Source: Plicaturopsis crispa FD-325 SS-3
Taxonomy: Eukaryota; Basidiomycota; Agaricomycetes; Amylocorticiales; Amylocorticiaceae
Assembly: GCA_000827205.1 (NCBI GenBank)
Contig: KN832576.1
Location: forward strand, 235,672-260,627
Length of the DNA: 24,956 bases
Reading direction: 5' to 3'
Positions 3,079 to 24,467 of this stretch are shown in pieces (the first letter of the stretch is position 1; each line of letters begins with the position of its first letter). Below the pieces are notes generated by a model. That model was not told where the DNA came from. It searched no databases and saw nothing but the letters and a program-made list of their open reading frames with translations. The position numbers and the translations under genes are program-made.

Positions 3079-3422
3079 TGTGACACCTCTTGTAGGAGTC
3101 ACGCGAGTGCTAACTGTCGCTCGTGTTCCGGCGGGTCAGGAATAGAGTGGTGGGCCTTGCTGTGTAGGCCCAGAGAGCTGTGGGCGAGTGTGTAGTGGTC
3201 GTATGGAGTCTCCTAGTGCCCGTGCTTCTTGGCTGTCTAGAGATAGAGCAGAGCTTAGGGCTGAATAGTAAATGGTGGAGGAGATAATAGATAGACGCAA
3301 GTGAGCCACAGCTCATGTAACTACGGTACAAATAGAAGTAAATATGGCTAAGCCACACAGAGTGCGGCTGATGGTTGGAGAGTCTTAAGATGAGAGGCAT
3401 TCTGTGTATATGCCCTGTCACA
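3079..3422 (-). repeat. Full-length LTR (3' LTR of a minus-strand element)
   Basis: The 344-bp segment has LTR-style ends: on the minus strand it starts TGTGACAGGG and ends GGTGTCACA, with perfectly inverted TGTGACA/TGTCACA termini. A G-rich polypurine tract lies directly outside it on the interior side (3423-3436). Bases 3079-3363 recur at 17204-17485 in the same orientation with only a 3-bp length difference and at most one substitution. The outer plus-strand edge can also fold: GTGAC, CCT, AGG and GTCAC pair within the first 22 bases. No target-site duplication is visible, because the partner copy lacks its outer end. Confidence 0.85.
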
Positions 3423-3436
3423 GAGCCCCCCACTCT
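3423..3436 (-). other. Polypurine tract
   Basis: On the minus strand AGAGTGGGGGGCTC abuts the first base of the LTR (TGTGACA). A purine run touching the 5' edge of the 3' LTR is the standard plus-strand primer site of LTR retrotransposons and fixes the element's orientation. Confidence 0.7.
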
Positions 3437-4088: not shown

Positions 4089-6029
4089 TCACGCGTCATC
4101 ACAAGCAAATGGGGTTCCCCAAAATGCCAGCGGAAGTGTTGGACGTAGCTTTGGACATGGAGGCAAAACGGACGTATCTGGATGCTGCCCCCCAGGGTTG
4201 ATCATATTGAAGCTCGTCGAGACTTCCGGGATGTGAAGGCGTCTTGTGCGTACGCGCGAGCATTGAGCGTTTGACTTGGAGCTGTGAGTGGCGAAAGAGG
4301 AGCTAGAGCTGGCAACCGTACGCGCAAGTCGCGTGCGAGAACTCTGCGCCAGAAAGCGACAAGATTCTGTAATGGCCGCGCTGTCACAGTGGCGCCGATG
4401 CTCATGTTGGGCTGACCGTATAGCAAGACTTGCGCATGTTTGACTACAGCCGCATGCGAGCCGCTCCTTGCACTTGCTGTCAACAAGCGCAGTGGGTCGG
4501 TGAGTTGTGAGACCATCCTCGTCTGACACGGGGCTCGACGTGAAGGGGCTCCCCGACTCGCCGGGCCTCCGTGACTCAGCAGGTCGCAGACAGGGTTCCC
4601 TAAAGGCGACTCCCGGCTGGCAGATTGATGTGTGCGGAGCCAGTCTGGCTTGAGCGTTGCGGCCCCGAGTCAACGGTAGGAACGGAGCGAGCACAGGGTT
4701 GTGGTGCGCGTGAAATCGAGGAGGACCCGTGACCCCGTTGATGTAGTAGAACCCAAACGTGGTATAGCTGTCGAATGCAAGCGCGGAACCCGCAGCAAGT
4801 ATGGAGCCTAGCCAGACCAACAATCGTTGCTGATGCCAGAACATGCAAACAGGCGAGCCAACGCTATACAAGAGTCGGGTTACGCGTCCCGCAGACCCTC
4901 GGTGGTCTGCTCGTGGCCTATATCTAAGCGTGTCCCGGCCTCCCGGATAGGGACTTGATGCCCACTGAGAAGCGCGACAACGCACTTGTGAGACAGTGTT
5001 CGAGTGACGCTGTGCGGTAGAGCGCCGCCCCCCAGGCTCGGCGGTGTCCCACAAGAAGCGTCGAGACTTGTCTTCGTTTGTTCTAGCTGTAAGTCGCAGG
5101 TAGAAACACGAGCCGATGTGGAGCGAGAATGCTCTTTGCATGTACGCGCGAATGTCATGCGTTTGCCGAGTTGCGTCCGAGGAGGGAGGAACCAGAGCCA
5201 TTGACTGTATGCGCAACTCGCACACAAAGGGCTGCCAATGAATGGAAGGGTGCAAATGTAGTGAATTTGGACCTGCGTTGCCGACTCCTACTCGGTGCCA
5301 GAACCACGAGCTTGTCGCCATGAGGTCAGAGAGGAAAGGGGGTGAGCAGCAAGTTGAAAGGCGTAGCATTAGGGATCCGTACCCCCCAGCCGCGAAAGCA
5401 CTACTATCTGCTGCTGAGTGGTAGTCGCTGCGCGGAAGGATGTTCGGTGGGTAATCTGCGTCGCCCGCGACATTAACATTTGTATTCTGGAGCACCGCTG
5501 AAGCGACCTGAGAGTCCGCGTTTTCGACAATAAGCACTTCGCCGTTAGGAGTGTGTACGTGCTTGCTTTGCACGCAAATATCCTGAGCTCGCACGAACGC
5601 CCGCAAGTCCTGATCCTGTGCGTATGAGAACCAATTCTTCGTGTCGTATTTTGTGGCCCTGTTTGCGAGGTCGCCGTTGTTGTCGGTGTTCAATGCAATT
5701 AAGGGTGCCTCGCTGGTTCGGGGGGCCGCGCTTTGTGCTTGCCGGACAAATAGAGCGCTGCGCGCGAATAAGCCATTGGAATCGGGGTGGACTCCGACGC
5801 CAGGCGCGTACACTTGCTGATCAGTGTTTACGCGTGCAGGCGCGTAGAGTTGCACGAGCTGCCAGTGAGCGTCCGCCGCTACATCAGGAAACCCGCAAGT
5901 TTCTGGCCGGACTTGTACAAGCTTGTACAAGCTTGTACAAGTCAAAAAAGTACGCCCCAGAGCGCAAGCTAGGTATTTTCGGCCCCCAGACCACAAATTT
6001 CGGTATGAAAACCATTTGCGACAAGACAA
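4089..6029 (-). CDS. Modular LTR-element protein, downstream piece (likely partial)
   Basis: A 646-codon open frame on the minus strand. It shares two modules with the giant frame further upstream in the same element, and in the same order. About 5330-4980 (WFWHRVGVG, FYLRLTARTN, EPGGRRSTAQRHSN) matches 13560-13240. About 4613-4520 (VAFREP, then GSPFTSSPV) matches the repeated GxPxSSxPAPC module. DNA similarity is also obvious (for example 5037-5120 against 13295-13380). No enzyme domain is seen. A hydrophobic stretch near 4830-4740 could be a chance product of drift. The first about 35 codons lie in or beyond the palindrome at 5910-5943 and probably belong to the nested transposon, so the true start is not here. 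I read it as the distal part of the giant frame, cut off by the Plavaka insertion. Confidence 0.5.
   Translation of the reverse strand: MSCRKWFSYRNLWSGGRKYLACALGRTFLTCTSLYKLVQVRPETCGFPDVAADAHWQLVQLYAPARVNTDQQVYAPGVGVHPDSNGLFARSALFVRQAQSAAPRTSEAPLIALNTDNNGDLANRATKYDTKNWFSYAQDQDLRAFVRAQDICVQSKHVHTPNGEVLIVENADSQVASAVLQNTNVNVAGDADYPPNILPRSDYHSAADSSAFAAGGYGSLMLRLSTCCSPPFLSDLMATSSWFWHRVGVGNAGPNSLHLHPSIHWQPFVCELRIQSMALVPPSSDATRQTHDIRAYMQRAFSLHIGSCFYLRLTARTNEDKSRRFLWDTAEPGGRRSTAQRHSNTVSQVRCRASQWASSPYPGGRDTLRYRPRADHRGSAGRVTRLLYSVGSPVCMFWHQQRLLVWLGSILAAGSALAFDSYTTFGFYYINGVTGPPRFHAHHNPVLAPFLPLTRGRNAQARLAPHTSICQPGVAFREPCLRPAESRRPGESGSPFTSSPVSDEDGLTTHRPTALVDSKCKERLACGCSQTCASLAIRSAQHEHRRHCDSAAITESCRFLAQSSRTRLARTVASSSSSFATHSSKSNAQCSRVRTRRLHIPEVSTSFNMINPGGQHPDTSVLPPCPKLRPTLPLAFWGTPFACDDA
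5910..5943. repeat. 34-bp perfect palindrome (three CTTGTACAAG units)
   Basis: Three tandem copies of the 10-bp palindrome CTTGTACAAG, flanked by GA and TC, form a 34-bp sequence identical to its own reverse complement. It lies where homology to the LTR element's modules ends and the nested transposon begins, so it may be the left terminus of the Plavaka unit. No matching copy was found near the other side (12296-12420), so this assignment is tentative. Confidence 0.75.
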
Positions 6030-6385
6030 ACCAGATTGCCAGAGGGTACCAGAGCGATGCCAGTGGCACTGAGCGCCAGTCGAAAGTCAAAAGGCACACG
6101 GGGTGCATACTAATTGAAAAATGCACTAATTTATAAACTAACTACTACGGCGAGCCGAGGACGAAGCAGAAGAGAGTGGGTATTAAAAGATGTGATGCTT
6201 TGACGGCAAGGAAAGTAAGAGCAAGTGAAAGGGGATGAGATATCGGATGGAGATTGAAATAAGACCGACTCGGAGACACGACGACTGAGCGGGATACCGT
6301 GGCATGTCGATGCTGCATTTTCAACCCCATATTGAGTTTCAGAAGCAAACGGAACGGAATGGAAACATACGCAAAGAGTGACATG
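5944..6385. other. 3' flank of the AT-hook gene inside the nested transposon
   Basis: This A/T-richer stretch follows the stop codon of the minus-strand AT-hook gene. It holds no long frame with domain content. It presumably contains that gene's 3' untranslated region and the left subterminal part of the transposon. Confidence 0.4.
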
Positions 6386-8843
6386 TCAGTTGTCATCCGA
6401 ATCATCAGGAGGCGGGCTGCTCGGTTGGTAGAAATCGCGTCGAGACTGACGCAGTGGCGGGGCACTAGTGGGCTGGCCGGAGCCGCGCGGACCTGCATTA
6501 TTGGATCCACAGAGCTGTAGAACCAGCTTCCAGCGCCTTTCGGAGATCTTGTTCACCAACGCGACGTAGTCGTCGGTCATTGCGCCAGCCGTGTCCTTCC
6601 CGAACTTGCCGGTTGTCACCTTTGTTCCTGTGTAAAACATATTGAACGCGCGCTCAACCTATGTTTGAATGTCAATAATATACCACTAAAACGAATACAC
6701 CGGCTTACTGCAGCTGCACAGAGCGCCAGAGCACCCTTCGGACGCCCGTATTCCTTACGAGAGTTCTTTGTGAACTTCAGAAAGCTAGCCAATGTAGAAA
6801 TAAAGAACGTCGACTCGAACAACGTATCAGGTTTCTGACTCACAACGTCAGTCACAGTACTATGCTTCACAAGAGAGAGAACTTGCGTACCACATAATCA
6901 ACATCAGCAGGGCTTGCACTGATGGATGCGGGGATGCGATATAGACCGGGCCCGTCGGATCGGTTCGCATATGCAGCGAACGTTGCAATTGCATTGCGAT
7001 CGCCCGCGTACTGAGGCTGCTTGAAGTGTTCGGTGACAGCCTTGACCGCGTTCTGACCAATCAGACTGCGCTTGTCGTTGAGACGGTCTCGCGCCTTGAC
7101 TCGTAATTAGTATCAAGCAACGGGCTTCAGAATCAATTGTAGTCACTCACTGTCTTGAATATCCTATCATTATATCGCACACGGTAATTCGTCCCGGGCC
7201 ATACGGTGTTGACGATGTCTTGCAGAGCAGGAACGAGGTCGCCGTCTGCACCCGCAGGACTCCAAGGTGTTTCGCTAGCCGCAAGAAAAGCGTAGAGAGT
7301 AGGGAGGAATGCGGAAGCCCACGCAGCGCGGGCAAACTCCGGAAGGTGAGCAACCGACTCGGATTGTCCATCGTTCAAGGCAGTGCTGGGTGTACTAGGC
7401 GTCGACAAGATCTCCGAAGGTTCGATACTTGTAGATGGTGAGCGCTTATGGACAGGTGCAGAGCTAAGCAGGTTCGTAGTCTGCAGCTTCTTGGTAGATG
7501 GCTTGCTGCGCATCGACTTTGGATTTTGGACCAGTTGAGTAGGATCCTCTGATGCGGGTGGCTTCGAGTCGGCGACAAAACCTACGAGCTGACAAGACCG
7601 TAAGTCAGATTAAGATACATGATAATTTACAACACACCTCGTTCTTGCGATTGTTATGGCTTTGAGGATCCCGTACGGTTGGCGGTATAGCTGCTGCATC
7701 ATCGTCATCGAGGCCACCGAGTACCTCCTGGTCAGACTCCTGGCCAGCAGCTTTTGTTGTACTGCGTTGATGCGACGAGGCCCGTAACTTGGTGGCCTTG
7801 CTTTCCCAGTTCGAAATCAGTCCAGATATGGCCTTTGTTGAGCTATGAAACGGTCGACATCGAGCAATATGAGAGGAAGAGAGTCAGTCAGTGGATTCCG
7901 TGGGAAGCAGTGACGGAAATGGTCACCTTTTCGTTGACGTTGAGTTCACAGGCGTCTTGCTTGCTCTCAACGTCTCCTTGATTTCCTCAACCTTGTTGCG
8001 AGTCTCCCCCTTGCCTGCCTTCTTCTTTCTCTAATGTAGATGGTAGTAGTAGCAAAAATGAAGTAAGTCTTGCATCTTTCGCAAGCATATTGAAATATTA
8101 CGCACCGTGCGCTTTTTCTGAGGCGCCTCGCCACCACTATGTTCCTCGACGTCTTCAAGCAAAAGTTCATCCATCATCTCGATGTCGGACTCCAGTTCAA
8201 CTGCTCCTAGGGCTCCCGTCGTCTCCGTAATCTCGATATCTTCGGGCTGGCTGCCAGTAACTTGGTGAGAAATGTCGGACACCTGAGAGAGATGGGTGAT
8301 TGCTGAATATTCTTCTTCAGCATCGGCTTGCGAGGTCTCGACCTCTAGGGCTGCCAAAGCCTGCAGTTTTTTCTTTTCAAGCTCCTCGAGCTCGAGAAGA
8401 AGCTCTTGCCTCCTGCGCTCTTCAGCAGCAGCTTCCCCCGGCTTCCTGATCGGACGAGGCATCACTGGGGCTGCAGGATTCACCACTCGCGTTGAGCGTT
8501 GGGGCAATGGCTCTGACCTGGGAGGTGGCAAGCGTGGTACCCTCTTTTTTGCTCCAGGCTTGCCAGTAGTCGCCGCCGAGTCGCCGTCCTCCTTCTCCCC
8601 CTCGTTGCCGATCCGGGGTGGCACAACCTTCTTTTCGCGTGATTTCTTCGCAGGAGGAGCTGTTCCAGAAGAGCTAGCTGTGTCCTTACGGGGGCGTCCT
8701 CGTTTCCTGGCCTCTGGAACTGTCGTCGCAAGAGCCGGCTCTGCGGAAGGTGCTGGACCAGGCGGTGGCGTCTCAGCTGGCGGATCTTCAGTGGTGAGTG
8801 CTGCCTTCTTCGAACGTGTTGACCGGGATATCTGCTCAGCCAT
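6386..8843 (-). CDS. AT-hook, coiled-coil protein linked to Plavaka transposase; unknown function
   Basis: Seven exons join in frame to 695 aa: 8843-8106, 8030-7927, 7842-7638, 7588-7151, 7094-6891, 6834-6709 and 6658-6386. All introns are GT-AG; the 56-bp fifth intron has a clear CTGAC branch site. The N-terminus has an AT-hook (KRGRPRK, residues 47-53), then basic Pro-rich sequence and a charged coiled coil (EERRRQELLLELEELEKKK, about 141-159). The middle carries acidic patches (GGLDDDDAA). The C-terminal third is more globular (VRYNDRIFKT, NAVKAVTEHF, GRPKGALALCAAAVERAF) and ends in a Pro/Ser tail. I cannot name the family. It starts 159 bp from the divergent transposase and probably shares its promoter, which suggests an accessory DNA-binding or regulatory protein of the transposon. 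The gene is intact. I chose the ATG at 8843 as the first in frame after the CT-rich promoter. Confidence 0.8.
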
Positions 8844-9002
8844 GATGTATGCAGTGGTTCACGGTGTAGACGTGTCAAAATGTAAGAGTGACGAGGCAAT
8901 GTGTTGTTTTATTTGGCTCTCCAAGGCGCTCGCGTGTCGCTAACTTGAATCGTTTTCTCTTCCTAAGTGCCTCTCATTCCTTTCCCCCCTCAGCCCTAAG
9001 CT
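8844..9002. promoter_or_regulatory. Shared divergent promoter of AT-hook and transposase genes
   Basis: Only 159 bp separate the two divergent start codons. The side next to the transposase is strongly pyrimidine-rich (TTTTCTCTTCC, CCTTTCCCCCC), as is common upstream of fungal starts. No clear TATA box is seen. Such spacing implies a common bidirectional promoter. Confidence 0.5.
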
Positions 9003-12000
9003 ATGTCTCCCGCAAGAAATACCACCCGCTACACATGCATGCACTGCCCTCGTGTGTGCTCTACTGCAGGTGGACTCACACAACATTACAACGCAATGCA
9101 CCGTGCGCCTACACCGGATTCAGACGACGACGAGGCAAACAGAGGTTCATACACTTTCCGTTACCATCAGAAACTGAACGGTGCGCTGCTCACTTTCTAT
9201 ATCCATTATAAACGACTCATACTTCTGTATAGCGAGACCTTGCGATGTGGATGGGGTGCCCCTGCCTCCTCACGCACCTCCCGCACCAAAGGATCCCCCT
9301 CCCGCAGACGAAAGCAATAACGCCTGGCATCCATTCACCTCGCGGCTCGACTTCGACTTTGCACACTTCCATTTCGTCACAGCCCAGAGCTCAGAGTCAC
9401 AAATAAACCAGGCCCTCGACCACTGGGCTGCGAGCGTCCTACCGTTTGGCGGCAAAACACCATGGGCTAACGCCAAGAAGATGTACGCCACAATCGACGA
9501 GATCCGGTCCGGTGACGCACCATGGCGGACCGTAAAGATACGTTACCAGGGCCCTTTACCACGCGGAACGCCCCCCAAGTGGATGACCGAGGAATACGAG
9601 CTCTACGTGCGTGACGCGTTGGTGGTTGCTCGCAACCAGCTCGAGACGACAAGTTTCAAGGGCCAGGTTAATACTGTGCCGTATCAGCAGTTTGACGTGA
9701 ATGGAAAACGGGTGTACTCAAATCTAATGAGTGGAGATTGGGCCTGGAAGCAAGCGGTGAGTGTCCGCGTTCTATCAGTATCTCTTTTACAATATTGATT
9801 CCGTGATTTTTGTGTTTTAGGATATAATTGCGGAGGACCCTGCTACGCACGGCTCCATGTTCGTGCCAATAGTTGCTGGTAGCGACAAGACAACGTGTTC
9901 GGTTGCAACGGGCCATCAAGAGTATCATCCCGTGTATATGTCCCCGGGAATCCTCACAAACACGGCTCGTCGTGCTCGTGGTAATGCGGTCTTACCGGTG
10001 GCCTTCCTCCCAATTCCCAAAAGTCAGTTCAGCGGTCTTTCGGATATTACAATGGCATTCTAACAGTCAGTCGGATCTGCAGCGGCAAAAAGGCATCGGA
10101 AACGTCCCGAATATCAGAAGTTTTGCCGGCAGATGTATCACGCATGCTTAGCGCGTGTATTTGAGCCACTCAAAGCCGCGATGACCGCTCCTGTTACTGT
10201 CCGCTGCCCCGACGGCCATTTACGACGCGCTATCTTTGGGCTTGGGCCTTACATTGCTGACTATCCGGAGCAGGTCTGGCTTGCTGGAATTGTCCAAGGA
10301 TGGTGTCCGAAGTGAGTGCGCATTACCTGCTAACTTATTTCCTGCACTCGCCACTGACTCGATTCACTCCTGCTTCTCTTCTTTGTGATAACAGATGCGA
10401 TGCTAAGCCAGACAATCTTGATGCTCCCAATTCCGTGCGGCGAACACAAGAAAGGACCGACTGGATCATAACGGCTTTTGATCCGGGCACTGTGTGGGAC
10501 GACTGGGGTATACGAGCTGATATTGTGGTGCGCTTATCTTTCCCGCTATCATCCCAACGTGTTTTCTGACCAGTGACAATATCTCATTCATTCAGCCCTT
10601 CACACACGACTTTCCTCGCGCAGACATCCATGAACTTCTGTCCCCGGATCTTCTCCATCAGGTTATCAAGGGCACGTTCAAGGATCATATCGTCACATGG
10701 GTCAACGAATATCTACATCTTGTTCACGGTGAAGCACGTGCGCATGAGATTATTGATGATATCGACCGACGGTACGAGTTTAAGATTCTTTGAACGCACT
10801 CGCGTGTAATGACCTCTCGCAACATCCAGAATTGCTGCCGTGCCTGCCTTCCCTGGACTGCGACGCTTCCCCGAAGGCCGCGATTTCACTCAGTGGACTG
10901 GAGATGACTCGAAGGCTCTCATGAAGGTACGTCAAATTGTCTATTTCCGCTATGCAGAGCAAGCCGCTCACACTGGTATGTTCCAAAATAGGTTTATCTT
11001 CCCGCCATCGCTGGCCATGTACCTGACAAGATGGTGAAATGCCTAGCCGCCTTCCTCGATTTCTGCTACCTCGCACGTCGCAATGCTCTCGACACTGATA
11101 CGCTCGCGGAACTAGAAGGTGCACTCAGTCGTTTTCACGCCCTCCGTGAAGTTTTCATCGAAGCCGGCGTCCGCGAAGATAACATCTCCCTCCCGCGCCA
11201 GCACTCCCTTTTGCATTATCCGCGCTCGATTCGCCTGTTTGGAACACCTAATGGGCTTTGTTCGTCTATCACCGAGTCCAAACATATTCAGTCGGTCAAG
11301 AAGCCATGGCGCCGCTCTAGCAAATGGAAAGCGCTCCTGCAGATGCTCCTCACCCTTCAACGGCTCGACAAACTGAGTGCCGCGCGGCGCGTTTTCGCAA
11401 AGCTTGGTATGATGGCAGGATCCACATTGTCATATACAGCTCGAATGCTCGCGGGACATGCTCCGGAGCCGGAACCGGACACAGACCAGGACGAGGATGA
11501 TGAACACGGGGAAGTCGCAGGCCCAAAGACGCCATCGAGTGTAAAATTAGCGCAGCGGCGTGGTGAGTTTGCTTGTTCTGTTGTTACATCATCGTTGTAC
11601 TAACCTCGAGGATGCGTAAAGAAAGCAATTATCCCCGGAACATTCATGGTCTCGCTGCGCGCATCCAGCAGCCGCGCCTTCCTGAGCTTACTCGGCGGTT
11701 TCTGTACGACCAGCTCCACCCCGATGCTGAGCTTACAGCGGACGATGTCCCTCTCGACCAATGCCCTCGCATCCTCGGGAAGATCTCCGTGTTTCATTCC
11801 GCTGTTGCCCGCTTCTATGCCCCGAGCGACTTCTGTGGATCTGGAGGGATGTACCGTGAGCGTATCCGCGCAAATCCGGATTGGCGGGGAGAATATGCGC
11901 GTTACGACACCGTGTTCGTCGTGACCGATGCGGAACAGCCAGGCATGTGCGGAATGGCCATCGGTCGTTTACGGCTATTATATTCCTTCACGCACGATGG

Positions 12001-12295
12001 TGTCGATTATCCGTGCGCTCTCGTCGAGTGGCTAGTGCCCTTCGAAGACCGTCCCGACGATATCACTGGCATGTGGATGGTAAAGCACGAGTACGAGGGT
12101 AACGGACGTCCGAGCATGGCCGTCATCCATCTGGACTGCATTGCCCGTGCAGCACATCTCATTGGTGTTTACGGGTCGTCGTTCATGCCTGAAAACTTTC
12201 ACTTTTCTTATTCTCTGGGTGTCTTTCGAGCTTACTATGTGAACCGGTATATTGACCATCACACGCACGAGTTCCTCGCCGGCGATGCACGGTAA
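9003..12295 (+). CDS. Plavaka-type transposase (CACTA superfamily), intact
   Basis: Nine exons join in frame to 931 aa: 9003-9180, 9233-9756, 9821-10022, 10071-10311, 10395-10527, 10596-10771, 10830-10926, 10992-11562 and 11622-12295. Every intron is GT-AG. The N-terminus has a C2H2 zinc finger (C12, C15, H28, H33). Characteristic Plavaka blocks follow: PWANAKKMYATID, LMSGDWAWKQA, MFVPIVAGSDKTT, CPDGHLRRAIFGLGPYIADY, HDFPRADIHELLSPDLLHQ, GRDFTQWTGDDSKALMK and FLDFCYLARR. Asp256 (GSDKT) and Asp444 (SPDLLHQ) are candidate catalytic acids of the RNase H-like fold. The C-terminal region (11622-12295) holds the usual conserved tail with YPCALVEW and HEYEGNGRP. The protein would bind the element's ends and carry out cut-and-paste transposition in the nucleus. 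No stop or frameshift was found, so the copy is young and possibly active. Confidence 0.9.
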
Positions 12296-12354
12296 CCGTC
12301 TAGGCTAGTACATTGATATTCTGCACTTGCCACACTTCAATAATGGATATTGAT
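12296..12354. other. Gap between convergent stops, holds a transposon edge
   Basis: The 59 bp between the transposase stop and the stop of the minus-strand giant frame must contain, or lie next to, the right end of the nested transposon. No inverted copy of the left palindrome is visible here. Confidence 0.35.
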
Positions 12355-15300
12355 TTATTCACGGTCGGTTTCGCTGTCTGGTGGACTTGTGAGTCTGGAG
12401 GATCTTGTCGTCTTGTATGCCAGAGAAAAGAGGCCAAAGTGGGCCTCAGTCGCGCCAGACAAATGCGCAGATTGCTGATGTAACGGGTCCTGAGTAGACT
12501 CCGTGGCGACAACGTCGACAACTACGAGTTCTTGCGCATTCTCGTCAGCAATTGACGCGTGGGCGGGCTGGACGGTCGCGGGTACCTGTAGCAGTGCTCC
12601 TGAGTCTTGTGCGTGCAACGACTCCTGCCAGTGATCCATTTTGCACTCTTGGTCTTTGGACGCCAAGGAGTGGGCAACCGTATTGAACACGTCTATGTGC
12701 TGGTCGCCGGCATCTAAGTCTGACACGTCTTGCGAGCGCCAAACGCTCGCAGCGGATGTGCCAGTACCATGGCGGTGAGTAGCTTCGCGTAACAGCATCG
12801 AGTCTTGCGTGTGGAGTAGCCGAGTACGCACTTGCGTCTGTGGAGAGTCAATGGCGCACGAGGGAACATCTTGCACGCAGACGGGCGGCGCGGACGCGCC
12901 TGGCCGATCTCGTATAGGCCGCACGACGAAAGATCCGGCAGCCTGGAGCGGTTGTAGATTTTTGGGGTCGGAGACACGCAGAAAGACGTCGCGTGAAGCC
13001 CTGATGACAGACTTGCACCACGATAGCTCCGTGCTGCTTGCGCGCTCGCTTTTGCAGGGCGCAGAACTTGACGAGATGGGGATCCCCGACTGGTCGAGTT
13101 TCTGCTGGGCAACGGGTTGCGAATGGGGATCCCCAGAGGCAACCCGATGACTTCCTGAGACGCGTGTTGGCATGTTCGTTAGAGCCGTCGGGTTTAGCAC
13201 CGTTCGTGCCGTGCGGTGCCGTCTACGTTCCAGGTGAAAAGCCTTCGCCCGTGATCCTGGCTGGAAAACGTTTGAGCGACGCCGCAGCGTACAGCACCGC
13301 CCCCCAGGCTTGACGATATCCTTTGAGAGGCGTCGAGACTTGCTTTTGCTTGTTTTAGCTGTAAGTCGCGGGTAGAAGCACGAGTCATTATCGGAGCGTG
13401 AGCCAAAACCTGAGGGTGATAGCGGCGTGCGCGACTGGCGCGGGAAGGGCCGCCAGTGCGGAGCGCGGTGTGAGTGAGGCAACCTCGGGGCCGAAGTGCC
13501 AACTCCCATTCGATGCCAGAGCAACGAGTTATCCGTGGGTTCAGAGAGGATGGGTAGCGCTCGCCGAGCCGGGAGACGCGGCCTCGTGAACTTGTGCCCG
13601 TTAGACTCGAATTTGTTCTCGGCCTTTTTATCCGTCCCGCGTCCTGGCATGTTCTCGCTGATCGCTACTGCTTGATGGTTCGCGTCGTGGGGTGCGATTA
13701 CGGAGGCAAGCGCCGTCGTAGAGGGCTGGCAAATGCCCACGCGGACCCCAAGATCCGAAGCGCTCACAGACACTTTGTTGGGGTCAAAGGCTACAGACAT
13801 GGCCGTCGTACGCTGAAGGTGCGCCGGCGTAGGGTCGTCAGATGCTTGAGTTAAACGGGCGCGCTCGTCCTTGAGGTCGCACTGGTCATCCGATTTGAAG
13901 GGTGTCGCTTCCTCGTTATGAACACAAATGAACCCTTCCGTCGCGTGAACAGGCAGGCTCGCGTGTGTGGATGTGTCCTTGAAGTTGGGCCTGGCGTGCG
14001 GGACTTCACCTGTACGGTGTGCGTTGGCATCCCACGTGTCGATGAACTGGGCGCTGGCATATGAGGGAGCGTTTTGACTGCAGACAGGCGGAGCGGACAC
14101 GCTGGAGTCGTCTCTGGTCACGGAAGATCCGGCAGCGCGGAGTCGTTGCAATTTTCCGACTACTGACGTACGAACATTGCTTTTGCAGGGCGCAGGCTTC
14201 GACGAGACGGGGCTCCCCGTCTGGCTGAGATTCTGCTTGCCAGCGGATTGCAAAAGGGGATCCCCAGAGGCAAACCGCTGACTTCCTGCAACTCGCGTTG
14301 GTGTTGGCGACATCCGCCCGGCGCGTTGTTGCCTACGTTCCAAGCAAAAATTCTTCGCGAGCAACGCTGAATCGAAAGCAGAATCGTCAGTAGAAAGATA
14401 ATGATCGAACCACTTACGCGCTACATATACGCGTCCGGCGAGCGCGTCCCAAGTAGCCTCAGATCCTTCCCTCGAACGAGCACCCTCTTTCAATTCCGTC
14501 AATAGCGTAGAGTAAACACTCATCACGTTGATGATGAACGGCCGCTGATTCTTGAGGCGCGCGAGACGGCAAATGAAGTGCTGAAACCGTGAGATCCAGC
14601 CAGTAATGCGCCCAGCGTACTCCTGTTCAAGCAGGAAATCATCGTCGTCAAGAGAGATGACGGCGTCTAAGTTGCGACGCAGGTCCGTAGCGCGATTGTA
14701 ATCGCTCGATATAGTGTCCAGCGAGTCCGGGAACCGTGCGGGTGCGGCCAATGACATGTTGGAGGAGTCAGTGTTCGACGCGCGGATGCGCAGATTGGTA
14801 GCAGGTACCAGCACGTAGGGATTCTGTGCAACCAGCCGCGGCGCGCACTTGAAATTGCGCTGTACCTTCATCGAAGTGTCGTCGTCATTACACTGGGCTC
14901 CACAAGCCTGGACGCGCAGATTAGTCTTCGTGCGTGAAAGTGTGTCCCGCGCACAGATAGGCTGTGCAGGCGGCGAGTCTGGCAGGGACACACTAGGTAT
15001 ATAAGCACCTGACGTGCGCGTCAGCTGCGTAGATGTAGACGACACCGGTGATACATCCGTGTCGGATTCTAGTCCATACGAGGACGCATAGTTTGAGCCG
15101 CAACTCTCGTCTTCTAGCGCAGTGCCGTCACTGGTATTCGACGGACCGACGGGGTGGTTGATGGTGTGAGAGCCTGGCGTGCTTTGCGCACGTCGAACGC
15201 TCAGAACGTTACACGCGGATGCGCGCGCGAGACTGGACTGGCCTCCGGCTGATACGTCGGCAGGCGAGTGCACGAGCCCTAAGTCGTCTTGTCTGGGAGC

Positions 15301-17157
15301 AGACAGCGCGGGGGCTCGTCGAGCGCGCAGCTTGTGTGTGCTCGAGGGTGTGGAACCGTCCTTGCCCGACGCCGCATGGAAGGGCGAAGGAGACATCCCA
15401 AGTACCGCCTGCAGCACACCCGAGACTCGTGCGCAAAAGGACGCACAATTCGAATTGCACTGCACGCCCTTGGGCCCGGAGCCGTAGTCCAGAGCTCGGG
15501 TAGGCTGACGACAGGCATGTGGTGCGTACAAGAACGCTTGCGTCGAGTCGCCCCGCGCTTCCTTGAGCGCGGTGTCCTTGTCAGCGTGCGGGAAGCCGGG
15601 GGGTTGATTGCTATAGTATGAGAACGAGTCTTGAGCGAGAATGGGCTGAGCGGGCGCGGAGGCGTCTTCATAGTTGGGCGGCGCAGGTACGTGAGAGTTC
15701 CCATTGCAGCCGCCGGAGTTGTGGTCGTCGTCCAGAGCCTGCGAGTCCAAGGGCTCCTCTGCGTTTGACACGGAAATGGGCTGGTCGCTAGTAGTTAGAC
15801 TTGACGCGTGTTTTGCATGTCGGATGTGCGGGATGTCGCTCGCAAAAACCTCATTGCGATTAAACCGGGCTTGGGCTGATTTGTCGACAGGATGTAATGA
15901 GTCTTGTGCGTAAGCGGACCTGGCGATTGCGAGCCCTGACGCGTCCAGTGCGCCCCGTGCGCGCAAAGACGCGCCCTTGCAGTCGTACTGCGCCGGGTGC
16001 TTAGGCGCGTGGAATGGAAAGGGCTGAGCGCACATTGGCGCGCGCTCTGTGTCGGATCGGGCGCGCGCCAGCGAGGTTTCGTCGTCGCCAAAAGGCGGTT
16101 CAAGGTCCGATTCAAGGACAGGCTGAGTGCCCGCGTACGCGTCTTCTTGCGGAGGACCTGGCTGATTAGGCTATGTGTTCGACGCACAAGGAGGATCGAC
16201 ATTGTCTGATGTATCGCTAGACACTGTGTGCACGGCCTCGTCTCGCGTTTGCATGCCATGCGCGCGGGGGGACTCAGCTTCCGCATCACTCTGGTCTTTC
16301 TCGCTAAAGACACGGCTGCTCGACCGAGTGCATGCGGACGCGATTTCACGGTCGGAATGCGCACCATGTGCTGACCCGTCCTTCGCGTCGGGTCGGTCTT
16401 CAAGCGACTCGATGAGCTTCACGTCCTCGCCGAGCACAGTTCTGTCTCGTGCACGAAAGACACGGGCGTCATGCTGATGACTGCGTCCAATGCCATCGAC
16501 TGCCTCGTGCCGCGGCTGTTGACTGCTTGTGCTGCGCTCGTTCTTGCAGGGCGCGGGGCTCGACGAGAAGGGGATCCCCAACTGGTCGAGCTTCCGCTGG
16601 TCTACGGATCGCGAGCGGGGCTCCCCAAAGGCGATCCGTTGACTCCATGAAGAGTGAGTGGGCGCTTGCTGAGGAAATAGCGGAGACGGGGTCCGGGAGG
16701 CGTGCAGCTGTGCTCGGTGGGCGCGAAAAGCCGAGCAGACGTCACCCCAGTCGAAAGGGGCCTCGTAAGTGGTCACGTAGTGATCAAACCACTTACCGCA
16801 GCCGTAAGCGCGTACGACGAACGCGTCCCAAGCAATCTCAAACGCTCTCCTCGTGTTCATGCCAGACCTCATTTCTGACAACATTGTCGTGCTTCCCCAT
16901 TCGGGATCCACGAACGCCGGTTGTCGGTTTCTGAGACGCGCGAGACGGGCGATCAAGCCTTGAAGCTGCGAGACGTAGGTAGCAATTTCATTGCCAAAGT
17001 CAAGCTCGAGGAAAATGGATGTCTCAGTACGAGAGCGAGAAGAAAGATATCGAATTGTGACGGGAATATCGACCAGGTGCATACATGCGATATTTTGCAC
17101 GCGCTCGCGCAAACCGAGCGCGTGGTAATCTCTCGAAATAGCTTCGAGTGAATCCAT
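12355..17157 (-). CDS. Giant modular protein of the LTR element, one in-frame TAG at 16171-16173
   Basis: From the ATG at 17157, 47 bp inside the right LTR, the frame runs 1,600 codons to a TAA at 12355. A single interruption, a TAG at codon 329, splits it. The codons on both sides of the TAG are in the same frame. No enzyme motif is seen. Repeated modules occur. Module A is a helical region with RLARLRNRQP and KWFDHY (17157-16690; again about 14735-14330). Module B has the consensus GxPxSSxPAPCK (about 16645-16547, 14290-14181, 13140-13053). Module C has SAPPVC (about 14155-14050, 12958-12845). Module D has WHRMGVG (13560-13240). The rest is Ser/Ala/Asp-rich and looks disordered. The position right after the 5' LTR suggests a gag-like structural role, which is inference. 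The last about 10-20 codons may lie in the nested transposon. Confidence 0.6.
16171..16173 (-). other. In-frame amber codon splitting the giant frame
   Basis: On the minus strand the reading is ACA TAG CCT AAT CAG, with both flanks open in this frame (328 codons before, 1,271 after). A CAG-to-TAG change is the simplest explanation. Readthrough, as used by some retroelements to set a gag-to-downstream ratio, is the alternative. The following bases (CCTAAT) are not the classic CARYYA readthrough context. Confidence 0.8.
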
Positions 17158-17203: not shown

Positions 17204-17485
17204 TGTGACACCTCTTGTAGGAGTCACGCGAGTGCTAACTGTCGCTCGTGTTCCGGCGGGTCAGGAATAGAGTGGTGGGCCTTGCTGTGTAGGCCCAGAG
17301 AGCTGTGGGCGAGTGTGTAGTGGTCGTATGGAGTCTCCTAGTGCCCGTGCTCGGCTGTCTAGAGATAGAGCAGAGCTTAGGGCTGAATAGTAAATGGTGG
17401 AGGAGATAATAGATAGACGCAAGTGAGCCACAGCTCATGTAACTACGGTACAAATAGAAGTAAATATGGCTAAGCCACACAGAGT
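17204..17485 (-). repeat. Truncated LTR copy (5' LTR)
   Basis: This segment matches 3079-3363 almost base for base; the only difference is GTGCTTCTTGGCTG at the left against GTGCTCGGCTG here. It keeps the interior-facing end (TGTCACA on the minus strand) but stops after CACAGAGT, lacking the last about 59 bp that carry the outer terminus and probably part of the promoter region. Near identity to the other copy indicates a recent insertion. Confidence 0.85.
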
Positions 17486-17802: not shown

Positions 17803-20800
17803 ATGCCAGTGATTTCGTCGCAAGATATTCTACAGCAAGGTACCCCGCAAGCCGCTGCACCCAAACGGACTCGAAAACCGAAGAATTTGGCATACGATGG
17901 ACCTGGCTCATCTAGCATGCATTCCTGGGCATCCGGGTCCCATTCCAATAATTTTCCCTCGTTGTCCGCATCCGCACCGACGCTGCCATCTGCGCGTACT
18001 CCCCACGATGATTCCGATTATCTCCCATTGTTCGGCCAGACATATTCGCAGGCTAACACTCTTTCCTCGCCGCCACGGTCCCCGTCGGGAACGCGCGTGC
18101 ACGGAAATCGGTCGGAGAATTCGGACACCCCAGACACATTTCGACACCAATCACAGAATCAAACACCGGCCAATTTCGCGCAAGCATCTGAGCGCAGGGG
18201 TCGTGTGGGACGCGCGGAAAGGATCGCCTCAGCGCTCGAGATCCTGCGCGCCGGCCATCTGACACCGACAGATCTATTTCTCGACGTCCTGGATGCGTCA
18301 AACGACGCGTTGTCGCACTTTCGACGCGGCATGTTCGAGAATGATAAATTTTCGAAGATCCTCGATGCAGCCATGGCCTTGCCGGATGGCAAAGAGGTAC
18401 TGGATAGTTGGATGAGTCGGTATTCACTTCCCCTCGTCCTATCGACCGTCACGCGCGAGATGGACGCCGTCACAAAAGCCCTTCGACTTACCATCAACGA
18501 CATTACACCAGAATTCATCGACTCTTGGAGTCTCGATTCGACAGCTGGAACTGCTGGACGCGACAAGGCGCCTGTAACGCTGGAGATCCTACGATGCGCG
18601 TCGCAGACGCGGCGTGCAGGAGAGCATAACAAGGTGAAAAAAGATCCTTCCGCGGTAAGTCCCATTTACCGTAGATTTTGGTGTCATCGCCTAATGGGCC
18701 TTCTGTAGTTCTGTTATGAGATGCTCGGGTCCCTCGGAAACCACCGTTCGCAGGCGAGTATGAATACACAGGCGATCCAAGGCCTCTTCGTCTGGGCAAC
18801 GGGGTGCTCACGGCAGATAATCGACGTGCTGCAGAAAACAGGTTTCTGCATCTCGTACGATTCTGTCCTCAAGCTCGTCAATAACCTCGCTTCCTGCTCT
18901 ATTGAGCAGGCCCGTATCGTCGCGCGCGGTCCCCATGCACTCTGTTGGGATAACATCAACATCTCGACGTCTATATTCACGGAACAGCGCGTAAACGGCC
19001 CCTCTAAAGTCCGTTCTGGAACCGTCGCAGTCCTGTATAAACTGCCGAACGCCAAACGATCCGATATGCTTCTGGCTCCCATGCTCGAGCGCGCTAAGAA
19101 AGCACCGGGACTGTCCTTCAACGCGGATATCCGCCCCACTCCCGATCAGTCTGCTTCCTTCAACGCGCAGCTACTAGTACACATCCTCCGCATGCTCTTT
19201 TTGTTTACGAAAGGCTGGGAGTTGTACGAGGGTCTCCCCGAGTTCCAACACCTGGCACGGCGTCGTCAGCTTCCTCCCGGCTATTGCACCGAGCAGTTTC
19301 CGGTCCGTGCGTCGACAATTGAGGAGGCGTCCGTCGAGGGGAATATTGCCGTCCCTGAAGATGTTTACCTCGCCCAACTCGAGATGGCGTACGAAGAGCT
19401 CATCTTGTACGGGATACCTACAGGTCCAGACCAGAGTACAAATGCTCGCATCCGCGGCGCCAAGATAATGCGACGCAAGGATGTGAATCCTTTCACTCGG
19501 ATGGAGGTATTTCAGCAGGCGTTCGGACTGTTTCACCTCTGCCTTAACCTTATTTGGGCGCTCCTTCACATACACCGCGGCTCGTTAAAACAGCTGGGAA
19601 GCCTCACATACTTCTTCACGTTGCTCGATAAGGCCCGTCTCGGATCCGAGCACCCGGATTACCACACACTTCTGGCTGCGCTCATGCAGATCTTGAACGG
19701 CCTTGTTCTCAGTGCGTGGAAAGAAGAATGCGGACACGCATCTTTCGAGGCCTTTGCCGCATCGAAACCAACACCTCAGGAACTTCTAGCAATCGCCCAG
19801 CAGATTCTATACAAATACTGTACGCCAATGGACGAGCCCCAACCGCCATTAACGAAGCCAAAGCCAGCCGACGCAATGAGCACTGATTCCGACTCAGACG
19901 CGGCGCCATCAGACGACTCTCCCGACGCCACTGGCTCTGCGGGACGCAGTGGAACACAACGACCTGTTCCACAAGACGATAATCCGCACAGAAACCTTCG
20001 CATACTCACGCGAGACTTGCTCTATGTTGTCGAACTCATACGAGCCATCTCGGACGGTGATATCGGACGGATCGAAGACATTCTCGGAAGTCTAGCCATG
20101 ATGTTCCGCGGTGCAGGCTCGAACAATTATTGTACGGAGATCCTGCACTTTCTCCACAATCTCAAGCACGTCTGGACGCCCGAGTTTGCGTAGGTGGATC
20201 TATATTCACTCGTAAATTTGTAGCTAAGTTATCTTTCGGACGCAGGAACATAATGCGCGACATAATGCTTGTCAATACAACAGGCCAAATTGGGCATTTC
20301 CTACCCATTGACCTTAACATTGAGCACATAATTGGATTCCTCAAGGTAGTGTACAGTTTACTGGTGTTCCGCCGGCTCGTAATCTGATGTCGTCGTGTTG
20401 TGTTGGTGCGCAGATATTATTCCTCTCGAAAGGAATGTACGGCTCATGGGAGCGTCTCGGCGATATATCTGCGGCAATAAATCACATACAGAAGGTCAAG
20501 AAACAGGTCGGATTGTCCCTCGGTGCCAAATATCACGGCAGAACACACACGACACCTGACACGTCCGCTTCCGTGTGGAAGGTCTTCCACAAAGTTCAAG
20601 AGCTTGGCCTTCACACTTTCACTCCTGACCGTGACGGCAACGATTCCTGCAAAGCCACGGTCGATATCTTATTAACGGGTGAGAAGAAACTCAAGAGCTC
20701 GACACTCGGGACTATCAACAAGAAGATACGGTCCCTCTTCTCCGGTGTCAGCACATTGGACGAAGAAGACGACCTGCCTGCAGTCGATATCAATATCGCC

Positions 20801-22985: not shown

Positions 22986-24467
22986 CTAGCGACGAATAAT
23001 CGGATCGAGACGGACAGCGGGTTTGGAAACACGGCCGGAACGGGTGGTAGTCTGAGCAGGAGGAACATAAAAAGAGAGTGGGTTTTCGCGGACGGGAACG
23101 GGTGAAATAGGACGAGGAATGAAATCTGCACTCCGGGAGGGTGTCGTGGAGTGCGGCTCGGACACGACGGCGAGGGCGGAGTCAAGCTCGGACGCAACGG
23201 GGAGGGCGGAGCTAGGCTCGGACGCGCTGTCAGCAGCGGAGTCGCGCGACTCGGACACTGCTCGGGATCCAGAGGGGACGACGGTGTTTGAGACGGTATT
23301 ATCGACGGTATTTGTAGAAGTGTTTGAACTAGAATTAGAAATAGAAAAAGAACGGGATAAGTCGAAAACATGGGGACGAGGAGCGCGGGTATGACGGCGG
23401 TGAAAGCGCTCGATTAGCTCGTTGTTGGTGGTAGGGATGTCGGAGAGAGGGACCCAAGAGTTTTCGGACTCGGGTAACGACTTCCAGCGAACGAGGTACT
23501 CGAAACGGTGCCCGATCTTCCGGCATTCGAGTAGGGAGTGAATGTCGAGAGCGGCGTCGTTGTCTAGAGAGAAGGGGGTAGGTTCGGAATGAGGATGAAA
23601 GAGGGAGGGGTCGGAGTAGGGTTCGAGGAGGGAGACGTTGAAGACGGGATGGAGACGCGAGAGGTAGGAAGGGAGTTCGAGATGGAAAGCGTTTGAGCCG
23701 ATTTTTCGAAGTATGGGGTAGGGACCGAGGCGACGATGGTCGAGTTTGCCGGTAGGACGAGTGGTGGTGATGTTGCGACGACGGAGCCACACGAGCTGAC
23801 CGGGTTTAAGATCAGGTGCCGGTAGGTGGTGCTTGTCGTAAGCGACGGCCTGTAGTCGTTGGGCATTCTCGAGCTCCGCGCGAAGCTCAGCGTGAATATG
23901 CTCGAGCCTGCGCGCGAGATCGTCGGCGGCAGGAACGGTCGAACGTTCGGAAATCTGCATCTCGAAAGTGGGGTGAAAAGCGCCGTTAGCATAAAATGGG
24001 GTAGACTTGGTCGAGGCGTTCTCGAGATTGTTGAACGCAAATTCTCCGACTGGGAGATAGTCAACCCAGTCGTCCTGCTGGTAAGATACGTACGCGCGCA
24101 GGTAGGTCTCGAGCGTTTGGTTGGTTCGCTCGGTCAGACCGTCAGTCTGTGGATGATAAGCTGTAGAAGAATTGACGTCAACTTTGAGTAAAGTCATGAG
24201 CTCTTTCCAAAACTTCGAGACAAAAAGAGACCCTCGGTCGCATACAATCGACGAGGGGAGGCCGTGGTAGCGGAATATGCGGTCCATGAACAGCCATGCG
24301 AGGTCGGGCGCGTTCATGGATTCGCGGCACGGGATGAAATGCGCAGCTCGGGTGAACCTGTCGCAGACGACCCAGATCGAGTCGTAGCCGTGCGAGACAG
24401 GGAGCTTGACGATGAAGTCCATGGTAATAGCCTTCCATGGACGTTCGGGGATTTCGAGAGGCTTGAG
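22986..24467 (-). CDS. Ty3/gypsy (chromovirus) integrase with chromodomain, 5'-interrupted
   Basis: The 478-codon frame from the ATG at 24422 extends upstream in frame to about 24467 (LKPLEIPERPWKAIT). It has the integrase core with the acidic triad: Asp in MDFIVKLP (residue 2), Asp in VCDRGSLF (62) and Glu in QTDGLTERTNQ (98), the last two separated by 35 residues. A GPY/F module follows (RRLGPYPILRKI), then a chromodomain (HRFEYLVRWKSLPESENSWV, about residues 300-320) that in this clade steers insertion to marked chromatin. The tail is Ser/Asp-rich. Everything before the core (the zinc-binding HHCC domain, RNase H, reverse transcriptase, protease and gag) is missing because copia sequence begins at about 24468. 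The visible part has no stops. It acts on the element's cDNA in the nucleus. Confidence 0.88.
   Translation of the reverse strand, partial: LKPLEIPERPWKAITMDFIVKLPVSHGYDSIWVVCDRFTRAAHFIPCRESMNAPDLAWLFMDRIFRYHGLPSSIVCDRGSLFVSKFWKELMTLLKVDVNSSTAYHPQTDGLTERTNQTLETYLRAYVSYQQDDWVDYLPVGEFAFNNLENASTKSTPFYANGAFHPTFEMQISERSTVPAADDLARRLEHIHAELRAELENAQRLQAVAYDKHHLPAPDLKPGQLVWLRRRNITTTRPTGKLDHRRLGPYPILRKIGSNAFHLELPSYLSRLHPVFNVSLLEPYSDPSLFHPHSEPTPFSLDNDAALDIHSLLECRKIGHRFEYLVRWKSLPESENSWVPLSDIPTTNNELIERFHRRHTRAPRPHVFDLSRSFSISNSSSNTSTNTVDNTVSNTVVPSGSRAVSESRDSAADSASEPSSALPVASELDSALAVVSEPHSTTPSRSADFIPRPISPVPVRENPLSFYVPPAQTTTRSGRVSKPAVRLDPIIRR

What the first reader, a model, noticed from the sequence alone, without database searches (positions are those of the whole stretch)
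12355..17157. A 1,600-codon gag-position frame broken by exactly one in-frame amber codon
The minus-strand frame from 17157 to 12355 is open except for a TAG at 16171-16173, and both sides share the same phase. The element's LTR copies are nearly identical, so few mutations are expected since insertion. Either the master copy already carried this stop, with readthrough giving a short (328 aa) and a long product, or this is a single recent CAG-to-TAG change. A pol-less element with a giant modular protein and possible readthrough is not something I recognise.
Basis: partly seen in the sequence, partly recalled or inferred. Interest (0 to 1): 0.8.

Follow-up and report, generated by a model that had tools for sequence, protein, structure and literature searches.

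The report
Amber stop in a mushroom retroelement
A very long reading frame in a mushroom's virus-like mobile element really is broken by one stop codon, but the stop is most likely an ordinary recent mutation; the odder thing is the element itself, which has no copying enzymes and carries several copies of a piece of its relatives' coat-protein region.

Summary
The minus-strand frame 17157-12355 is open except for TAG at 16171-16173; 28-40 stops are expected by chance. The host is the mushroom Plicaturopsis crispa. The element is a pol-less LTR retroelement with two LTRs (the 5' one truncated), a tRNA-type primer-binding site shared with Gypsy loci of the same genome, and a polypurine stretch. 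Its repeated protein module is remotely homologous to an N-terminal domain of those Gypsy polyproteins. At the empty site the frame continues in phase to 4089: 2,155 codons with one TAG, codon 329. The LTRs differ by one substitution and one 3-bp indel, so about 0.4-0.8 nonsense changes are expected in so long a frame: one stop is ordinary. Of six related Gypsy loci, two carry a single in-frame stop elsewhere and none shares this one. The published gene model removes the TAG as a 30-nt intron, but that model is unreliable. No sister copy covers codon 329, so programmed readthrough is unlikely but not excluded. The giant, module-multiplied, pol-less frame is the more interesting feature.

The parts
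17204..17485 (-). 5' LTR, truncated at its 5' end by about 59 bp
   Evidence: 99% identical to 3079-3363 (one substitution and one 3-bp indel); fuller form seen in the 3' copy and in the solo LTR on C3
17187..17202 (-). primer-binding site AGTGGACTAACTGGGA
   Evidence: 10 places in the genome with at most 1 mismatch, 0 with the reversed control pattern; matches the 3' end of an intron-containing tRNA gene at C4:1579733
16174..17157 (-). frame upstream of the amber codon, 328 codons, with the first copy of the module
16171..16173 (-). amber codon TAG, codon 329
12481..16170 (-). frame downstream of the amber codon up to the Plavaka insertion, 1,230 codons
16765..17025 (-). module copy 1, stretch homologous to the Gypsy N-terminal domain
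   Evidence: hhalign probability 92.2%, E 5.7e-7
14305..14643 (-). module copy 2
   Evidence: 35% identical to copy 1; also matches the C2 relative
16540..16662 (-). repeat D1, copy next to module 1 (the others at 14179-14301 and 13048-13170)
13270..13384 (-). repeat D4 (second copy 4998-5112, beyond the Plavaka insertion)
   Evidence: 78% identical; both lie in the same frame once the insertion is discounted
5882..12480 (.). PlavakaB-type DNA transposon, CATCA..TGATG ends, TA on both sides (5880-5881 and 12481-12482)
   Evidence: PF18759 1.6e-28 on one ORF; end sequences; relative at C6; end rules in PMC12730594 (passages)
4089..5879 (-). rest of the giant frame after the insertion, 596 codons plus TGA
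   Evidence: same phase as 17157-12481; shares D4 with the upstream part
3423..3436 (-). polypurine-tract-like stretch AGAGTGGGGGGCTC just before the 3' LTR
   Evidence: sequence; function inferred
3079..3422 (-). 3' LTR, TGTGACAGGG..GTGTCACA

Best explanation
This is a non-autonomous LTR retroelement of Plicaturopsis crispa related to the Ty3/Gypsy elements of the same genome. It keeps the parts needed in cis (LTRs, tRNA-type primer-binding site, polypurine stretch). In place of capsid and pol it carries one giant frame of 2,155 codons, built from repeats of a Gypsy N-terminal domain and fast-evolving linkers. It was presumably copied in trans by an autonomous relative (inferred). After this copy inserted, ordinary decay set in: a Plavaka transposon split the frame, part of the 5' LTR was lost, and one nonsense change produced TAG at codon 329, which ends translation after 328 residues (inferred; expression was not tested).
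For: Shown: the frame and its single stop; LTRs, primer-binding site, tRNA match and polypurine stretch; a solo LTR of the family with a 5-bp target duplication; no match between the LTRs to a Gypsy gag-pol profile at E 0.01 except the N-terminal frame, among 1,936 ORFs searched, and 0 of 42 listed RVT_1 hits in the genome on this contig; domain homology; Plavaka insertion and phase. Expected nonsense changes since insertion are 0.37-0.80 for 1-2 LTR substitutions. Of six Gypsy loci with the same primer-binding site, two are open throughout the stretch held, two have exactly one in-frame stop, each at a place where the four other aligned loci have a sense codon, and two are more broken (L031 was not in the alignment). 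Had an untranslatable stop been present during half of the 11% LTR divergence of the family, about 10.5 further stops would be expected in the 1,826 codons downstream and none is seen, so the stop is recent or read through.
Against: No copy with a sense codon at 329 was found, because no copy covers that codon. The age rests on one substitution in 282 bp, and LTR and frame may mutate at different rates. The domain homology is remote and rests on shallow alignments (3 and 6 sequences). One of the two single stops in relatives (L030) lies just upstream of the conserved, capsid-like part of its polyprotein, a mild hint that truncation there could matter. In the linker repeats dN is not clearly below dS.
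Confidence: 0.72

Rival explanations
1. Programmed readthrough: the TAG belongs to the active element, giving a 328-residue short product and a long one of up to 2,155 codons.
For: No other stop in the 1,826 codons downstream. In-frame stops with readthrough are described in fungal LTR elements: Tosmo1-3, Tcry1 and Tj1 of fission yeasts (PMC10085805, passages read).
Against: Those stops are TGA with a conserved 8-nt context between Gag and Pol; this one is TAG, has no pol behind it and no unusually stable RNA fold after it (z -0.73). The related Gypsy loci share no stop. One stop is expected from decay alone.
Confidence: 0.08
2. Mini-intron: the TAG lies in a 30-nt intron, as in the published gene model PLICRDRAFT_32888.
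For: Removing GTGCGT..CCAG (30 nt, 16187-16158) reproduces the published protein there. It has a fair 5' site and a CTAAT branch-like motif (motif judgement recalled).
Against: The same model also takes out 51 nt that code for a conserved stretch of the module (with W123, H126 and Y127, invariant in the three-member alignment) and 35 nt near the Plavaka end, and its last exon runs into the Plavaka terminus, so it looks like a predictor working around breaks. A 30-nt intron is very short for a fungus (recalled); one basidiomycete pipeline sets 30 as its floor (PMC8022950, passage), though two others allow 5 or 10 (PMC5006051 and PMC4084796, passages), so length alone does not exclude it. An intron spliced from the genomic RNA would be lost on retrotransposition.
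Confidence: 0.1
3. Sequencing or assembly error at codon 329.
For: One base in one draft assembly; the published protein comes from the same strain and gives no independent read.
Against: No run of N in the window; nothing else could be tested.
Confidence: 0.07
4. The frame is not a protein gene; it is open for some other reason.
For: Linker repeats show weak or no constraint on residues: dN/dS 0.23/0.14, 0.22/0.52 and 0.35/0.37 for the D1 pairs and 0.27/0.24 for D4 (38-41 codons each). No Pfam family on the pieces tested.
Against: 28-40 stops expected and one found; module copies dN 0.55, dS 1.17; homology to a domain of Gypsy polyproteins; in-phase continuation beyond the insertion.
Confidence: 0.03

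Closest known systems
Ty3/Gypsy elements of P. crispa with the same primer-binding site (L030-L035)
   Same: Primer-binding site; LTR end ..GTCACA in three of six (GTTACA in the other three); N-terminal domain in the same position
   Different: RT, RNase H and integrase in L034 and an RVT_1 hit inside five of the six fetched loci; no internal repeats in the first 1,700 residues of the three tested (L032, L033, L034); single frames of over 2,600 residues in L033 and L034
TR-GAG elements of plants
   Same: Pol-less LTR element with one frame in gag position, presumably mobilised in trans (PMC8704663, passages)
   Different: TR-GAGs encode a GAG protein (562 aa in the Arabidopsis case); here no capsid or zinc knuckle was found and the frame is 2,155 codons
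LARD (large retrotransposon derivative), reported in Laccaria bicolor
   Same: Large non-autonomous LTR-type element in an agaricomycete (PMC3411680, passages)
   Different: LARDs lack coding capacity (recalled); this one has a giant open frame
Fission-yeast elements with an in-frame stop (Tj1, Tosmo1-3, Tcry1)
   Same: One in-frame stop in an LTR element (PMC10085805, passages)
   Different: Conserved TGA context between Gag and Pol; here TAG, not known to be conserved, no pol
PlavakaB DNA transposons (the insertion)
   Same: PF18759 transposase, CATCA..TGATG ends, 2-bp target duplication
   Different: Nothing noted; it is an inserted passenger

Membership tests
LTR retrotransposon | Pair of direct LTRs with TG..CA ends | tested here: met
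   the 5' LTR is truncated, so its own 5' end is missing
LTR retrotransposon | tRNA-complementary primer-binding site after the 5' LTR | tested here: met
   15 contiguous bases match the tRNA gene's 3' end, 16 with the CCA end added later (recalled). ARAGORN without introns found no tRNA there, with introns allowed it calls Arg(ccg); by hand I read Ala(AGC)
LTR retrotransposon | Target-site duplication around this copy | tested here: inconclusive
   the 5' end of the 5' LTR is lost, so the flanks cannot be compared; the solo LTR at C3 has GAAGT on both sides
Ty3/Gypsy | RT, RNase H and integrase | tested here: not met
   hence filed as Gypsy-related and non-autonomous, not as a complete Gypsy element
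Ty3/Gypsy | Shared domain in the gag region | tested here: met
   hhalign 92.2%, E 5.7e-7, 83 columns; weak support (E 0.0085)
TR-GAG | Encodes GAG with capsid or zinc knuckle | tested here: not met
   no Pfam hit on the pieces tested; no match of the frame to the capsid-like part of the Gypsy profile at E 0.01
TR-GAG | Transposes with proteins from a partner | not testable with these tools
   needs an experiment
Programmed-readthrough element | Stop conserved among copies | tested here: inconclusive
   no copy of the same subfamily covers codon 329; the related Gypsy loci share no stop
Programmed-readthrough element | Stimulating context or RNA structure | tested here: not met
   z -0.73 for 101 nt; the published 8-nt TGA context is absent; other context motifs compared from recall only
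PlavakaB | PF18759 transposase | tested here: met
   one of five ORFs tested
PlavakaB | CATCA..TGATG ends and 2-3 bp target duplication | tested here: met
   sequence, rule; TA on both sides. The C6 relative, by my reading, ends CATTT..GGATG with TA on both sides

The most novel reading that the evidence does not exclude
A pol-less Gypsy derivative has become a parasite at the level of the particle: it multiplied an N-terminal Gag-region domain into a giant scaffold-like protein and uses a leaky amber codon to make a short one-module form and a rarer multi-module form that together hijack or modulate assembly of autonomous Gypsy particles.
Probability: 0.06. Interest if true: 0.75.

Novelty: new variant of a known kind. 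Interest (0 to 1): 0.35.

Why it matters
The stop itself is most likely ordinary. The element is a case, in a fungus, of a non-autonomous LTR element that does not only lose genes but expands one: a domain that its Gypsy relatives carry once is repeated inside a 2,155-codon frame. If such frames are translated they could act on the particles of their helpers. That can be tested in an organism for which long-read RNA sequencing has been published (PMC4503453, passages read).

Tried and rejected
Relatives by protein search: three searches of 5.8 billion proteins found only the published model of this same locus or nothing. The search needs shared 5-residue words, and searches scored only the best 7,991 and 7,993 candidates, so absence elsewhere is weak evidence. 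The 3,554-residue 'open frame' reported at C2 is an artefact of a run of N; the far side of that gap (L044, L045) gave no LTR, pol or frame match. Fold: AlphaFold2 on the two window modules (2 sequences) gave an all-helical model, pLDDT 70.5, pTM 0.63; of 114 PDB matches none reached E 0.001, the best being 1.5, so it says little. A self-priming idea for the primer site was dropped when the tRNA match appeared. A first choice of Plavaka ends was replaced by the published PlavakaB rule; both give the same phase. LTR pairs of the Gypsy loci were sought in the first fetch without result and found for two of four with more flank (L033, L034). Literature: five of my ten searches bear on the design or on readthrough in fungal elements; their listings showed me no fungal element of this design. 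They cover only the held open-access library, most rows were seen as titles and abstract starts only, and one search returned mostly unrelated papers. The other five were on introns, the host and Plavaka.
Full report
OBSERVATION. The frame is real. On the minus strand 17157-12355 there are 328 codons, TAG (16173-16171), then 1,271 codons in the same phase. Order-1 and order-2 Markov versions of the same DNA average 39.5 and 28.6 stops (200 simulations each, minima 21 and 16); the other five real frames hold 31, 55, 54, 50 and 55. GC by codon position is alike on both sides of the TAG (0.61/0.51/0.62 and 0.61/0.54/0.63).

HOST. The window is G000:C23:235672-260627, the end of a contig in a 33.2-Mb genome of 49 contigs (contig end). 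The only protein hit is PLICRDRAFT_32888 of Plicaturopsis crispa FD-325 SS-3, the published model of this locus.

ELEMENT ENDS. Direct repeats 17204-17485 and 3079-3363 differ by one substitution and one 3-bp indel. A third copy at C3:788179 is 89% identical and reads as a solo LTR: TGTGACAGGG..GTGTCACA with GAAGT on both sides. By comparison with it the 3' LTR runs 3079-3422 and the 5' LTR has lost about 59 bp. AGAGTGGGGGGCTC lies just before the 3' LTR. After the 5' LTR comes AGTGGACTAACTGGGA. With at most one mismatch this occurs at 10 places in the genome (4 exact), against 0 for the reversed control. The 10 are this element, a relative at C2:1675957, a tRNA gene (L024), six Gypsy loci (fetched again with more flank as L030-L035) and one place with no frame over 238 residues in what follows (L028). 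ARAGORN finds no tRNA in L024 without introns and Arg(ccg) with an intron; by hand I read Ala(AGC) with a G3:U70 pair.

NO POL. tblastn with the frames of 250 residues or more of six Gypsy loci finds only 23772-24467 in the window, a separate element outside the LTRs. A profile made from five of these loci, run against 1,936 ORFs of the window and seven fetched stretches, finds at E 0.01 that same element and, weakly (E 0.0085), the N-terminal frame of this one. None of the 42 RVT_1 hits listed for the genome lies on this contig (44 candidates scored, counts are lower bounds).

PLAVAKA INSERTION. Of five ORFs tested in this part, the one at 9178-9798 (+) matches the Plavaka transposase (PF18759, 1.6e-28). 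DNA of 9230-12276 is 70% identical to a relative at C6, whose matches span C6:573146-579639. PlavakaB elements end CATCA..TGATG and make 2-3 bp target duplications (PMC12730594, passages). In the window CATCAGG starts at 5882 and CTGATG ends at 12480, with TA on both sides (sequence, counted by hand). Across this empty site the frame of 17157-12481 and that of 5879-4089 have the same phase; together they hold 2,155 codons, one of them TAG (329), and a terminal TGA. In the two other phases the second piece has 9 and 20 stops. Repeat D4 occurs once on each side of the insertion, in frame. A phase match by chance is 1 in 3, so the open frame and the shared repeat carry the argument.

WHAT THE FRAME ENCODES. 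Residues 2-211 recur at residues 482-669 of the downstream part (35% identity, E 2e-32), a shorter piece recurs at 969-1048, and the part beyond Plavaka shares another piece. There is no Pfam hit on the pieces tested. The C2 relative has the same module at 26-32% identity after an LTR-like end and primer site; its frame runs into about 9.8 kb of N, and no second LTR was found for it. A profile of the module (three sequences) matches a profile of the N-terminal domain of six Gypsy polyproteins: probability 92.2%, E 5.7e-7, 83 columns. In L034 this domain lies some 350 residues upstream of a conserved part that I take for capsid (no Pfam hit), a zinc knuckle (E 0.4, below its cut-off) and RT, RNase H and integrase. 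The three Gypsy N-terminal regions tested show no internal repeats at E 0.01. So this element repeats a domain that its relatives carry once. Constraint is modest: module copies dN 0.55, dS 1.17; in the linker repeats dN is about equal to or above dS in three of four pairs and 0.22/0.52 in the fourth. That speaks against a strongly constrained protein.

THE TAG. Neutral decay: with one LTR substitution in 282 bp, about 11 substitutions and 0.37-0.40 nonsense changes are expected in the frame; with two, 0.74-0.80; P(at least one) is 0.31-0.55 (which counted 2,149 codons with the earlier choice of insertion ends). One stop is therefore ordinary. Were the TAG old and not read through, about 10.5 more stops would be expected downstream at half the 11% LTR family divergence, and 0 are seen. 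It is thus recent or read through. Relatives: of six Gypsy loci, L033 and L034 are open throughout the stretch held, L030 and L035 have exactly one in-frame stop each inside an otherwise open frame, and L031 and L032 are more broken. At both single stops the four other aligned loci have a sense codon (L031 not aligned), so these are nonsense changes at different places. That looks like the normal decay of this clade. L030's stop lies just before its capsid-like part, which I note as a mild hint the other way. RNA after the TAG folds little better than shuffles (z -0.73, 46 of 200 shuffles at least as stable).

MINI-INTRON. The published model is reproduced by removing 30 nt (16187-16158), 51 nt (14417-14367) and 35 nt (12556-12522). 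The second removes the KWFDHY stretch, which holds three residues invariant among the three module sequences; the last exon crosses the Plavaka end at 12480. The model is therefore a poor witness. The 30-nt stretch does have fair splice signals, and pipelines differ in the shortest intron they allow (30, 5 and 10 nt), so I keep 10%.

VERDICT. An ordinary nonsense change (0.72) in a recent, pol-less, Gypsy-related element. Mobilisation in trans by autonomous Gypsy elements is inferred from the shared primer site and domain; the C2 relative's upstream sequence also shares 78% over 133 bp with the stretch upstream of the primer site in Gypsy locus L032. The interest lies in the element's giant, module-multiplied frame.

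Noticed in passing
window 22986-24422 (-): Fragment of a separate Gypsy chromovirus: Tf2-1-type SH3 and chromodomain above cut-off, integrase core below it; matched by the Gypsy profile.
   Followed up: no
window 18721-20193 (+): 490-residue ORF with DUF6589 (2.6e-80), preceded by a 301-residue ORF on the same strand.
   Followed up: no
window 5910-5943; C6:579608-579639: A palindromic tandem repeat (CTTGTACAAG units) near one end of both Plavaka relatives, identical over 32 bases while the rest is about 70% identical: a possible transposase-binding site.
   Followed up: partly
L021 / G000:C2:1675344-1675972: Second member of the module family with an LTR-like end and primer site, cut off by about 9.8 kb of N; closing the gap would show whether it is pol-less too.
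   Followed up: partly
L030-L035: Gypsy elements with a very long region before RT (about 1,700 residues in L034) and an N-terminal domain without a Pfam hit in the three tested (L030, L033, L034).
   Followed up: partly
window 6400-8858 (-): Likely second gene of the Plavaka element, divergent from the transposase, with a weak AT-hook (E 0.012, below cut-off).
   Followed up: no
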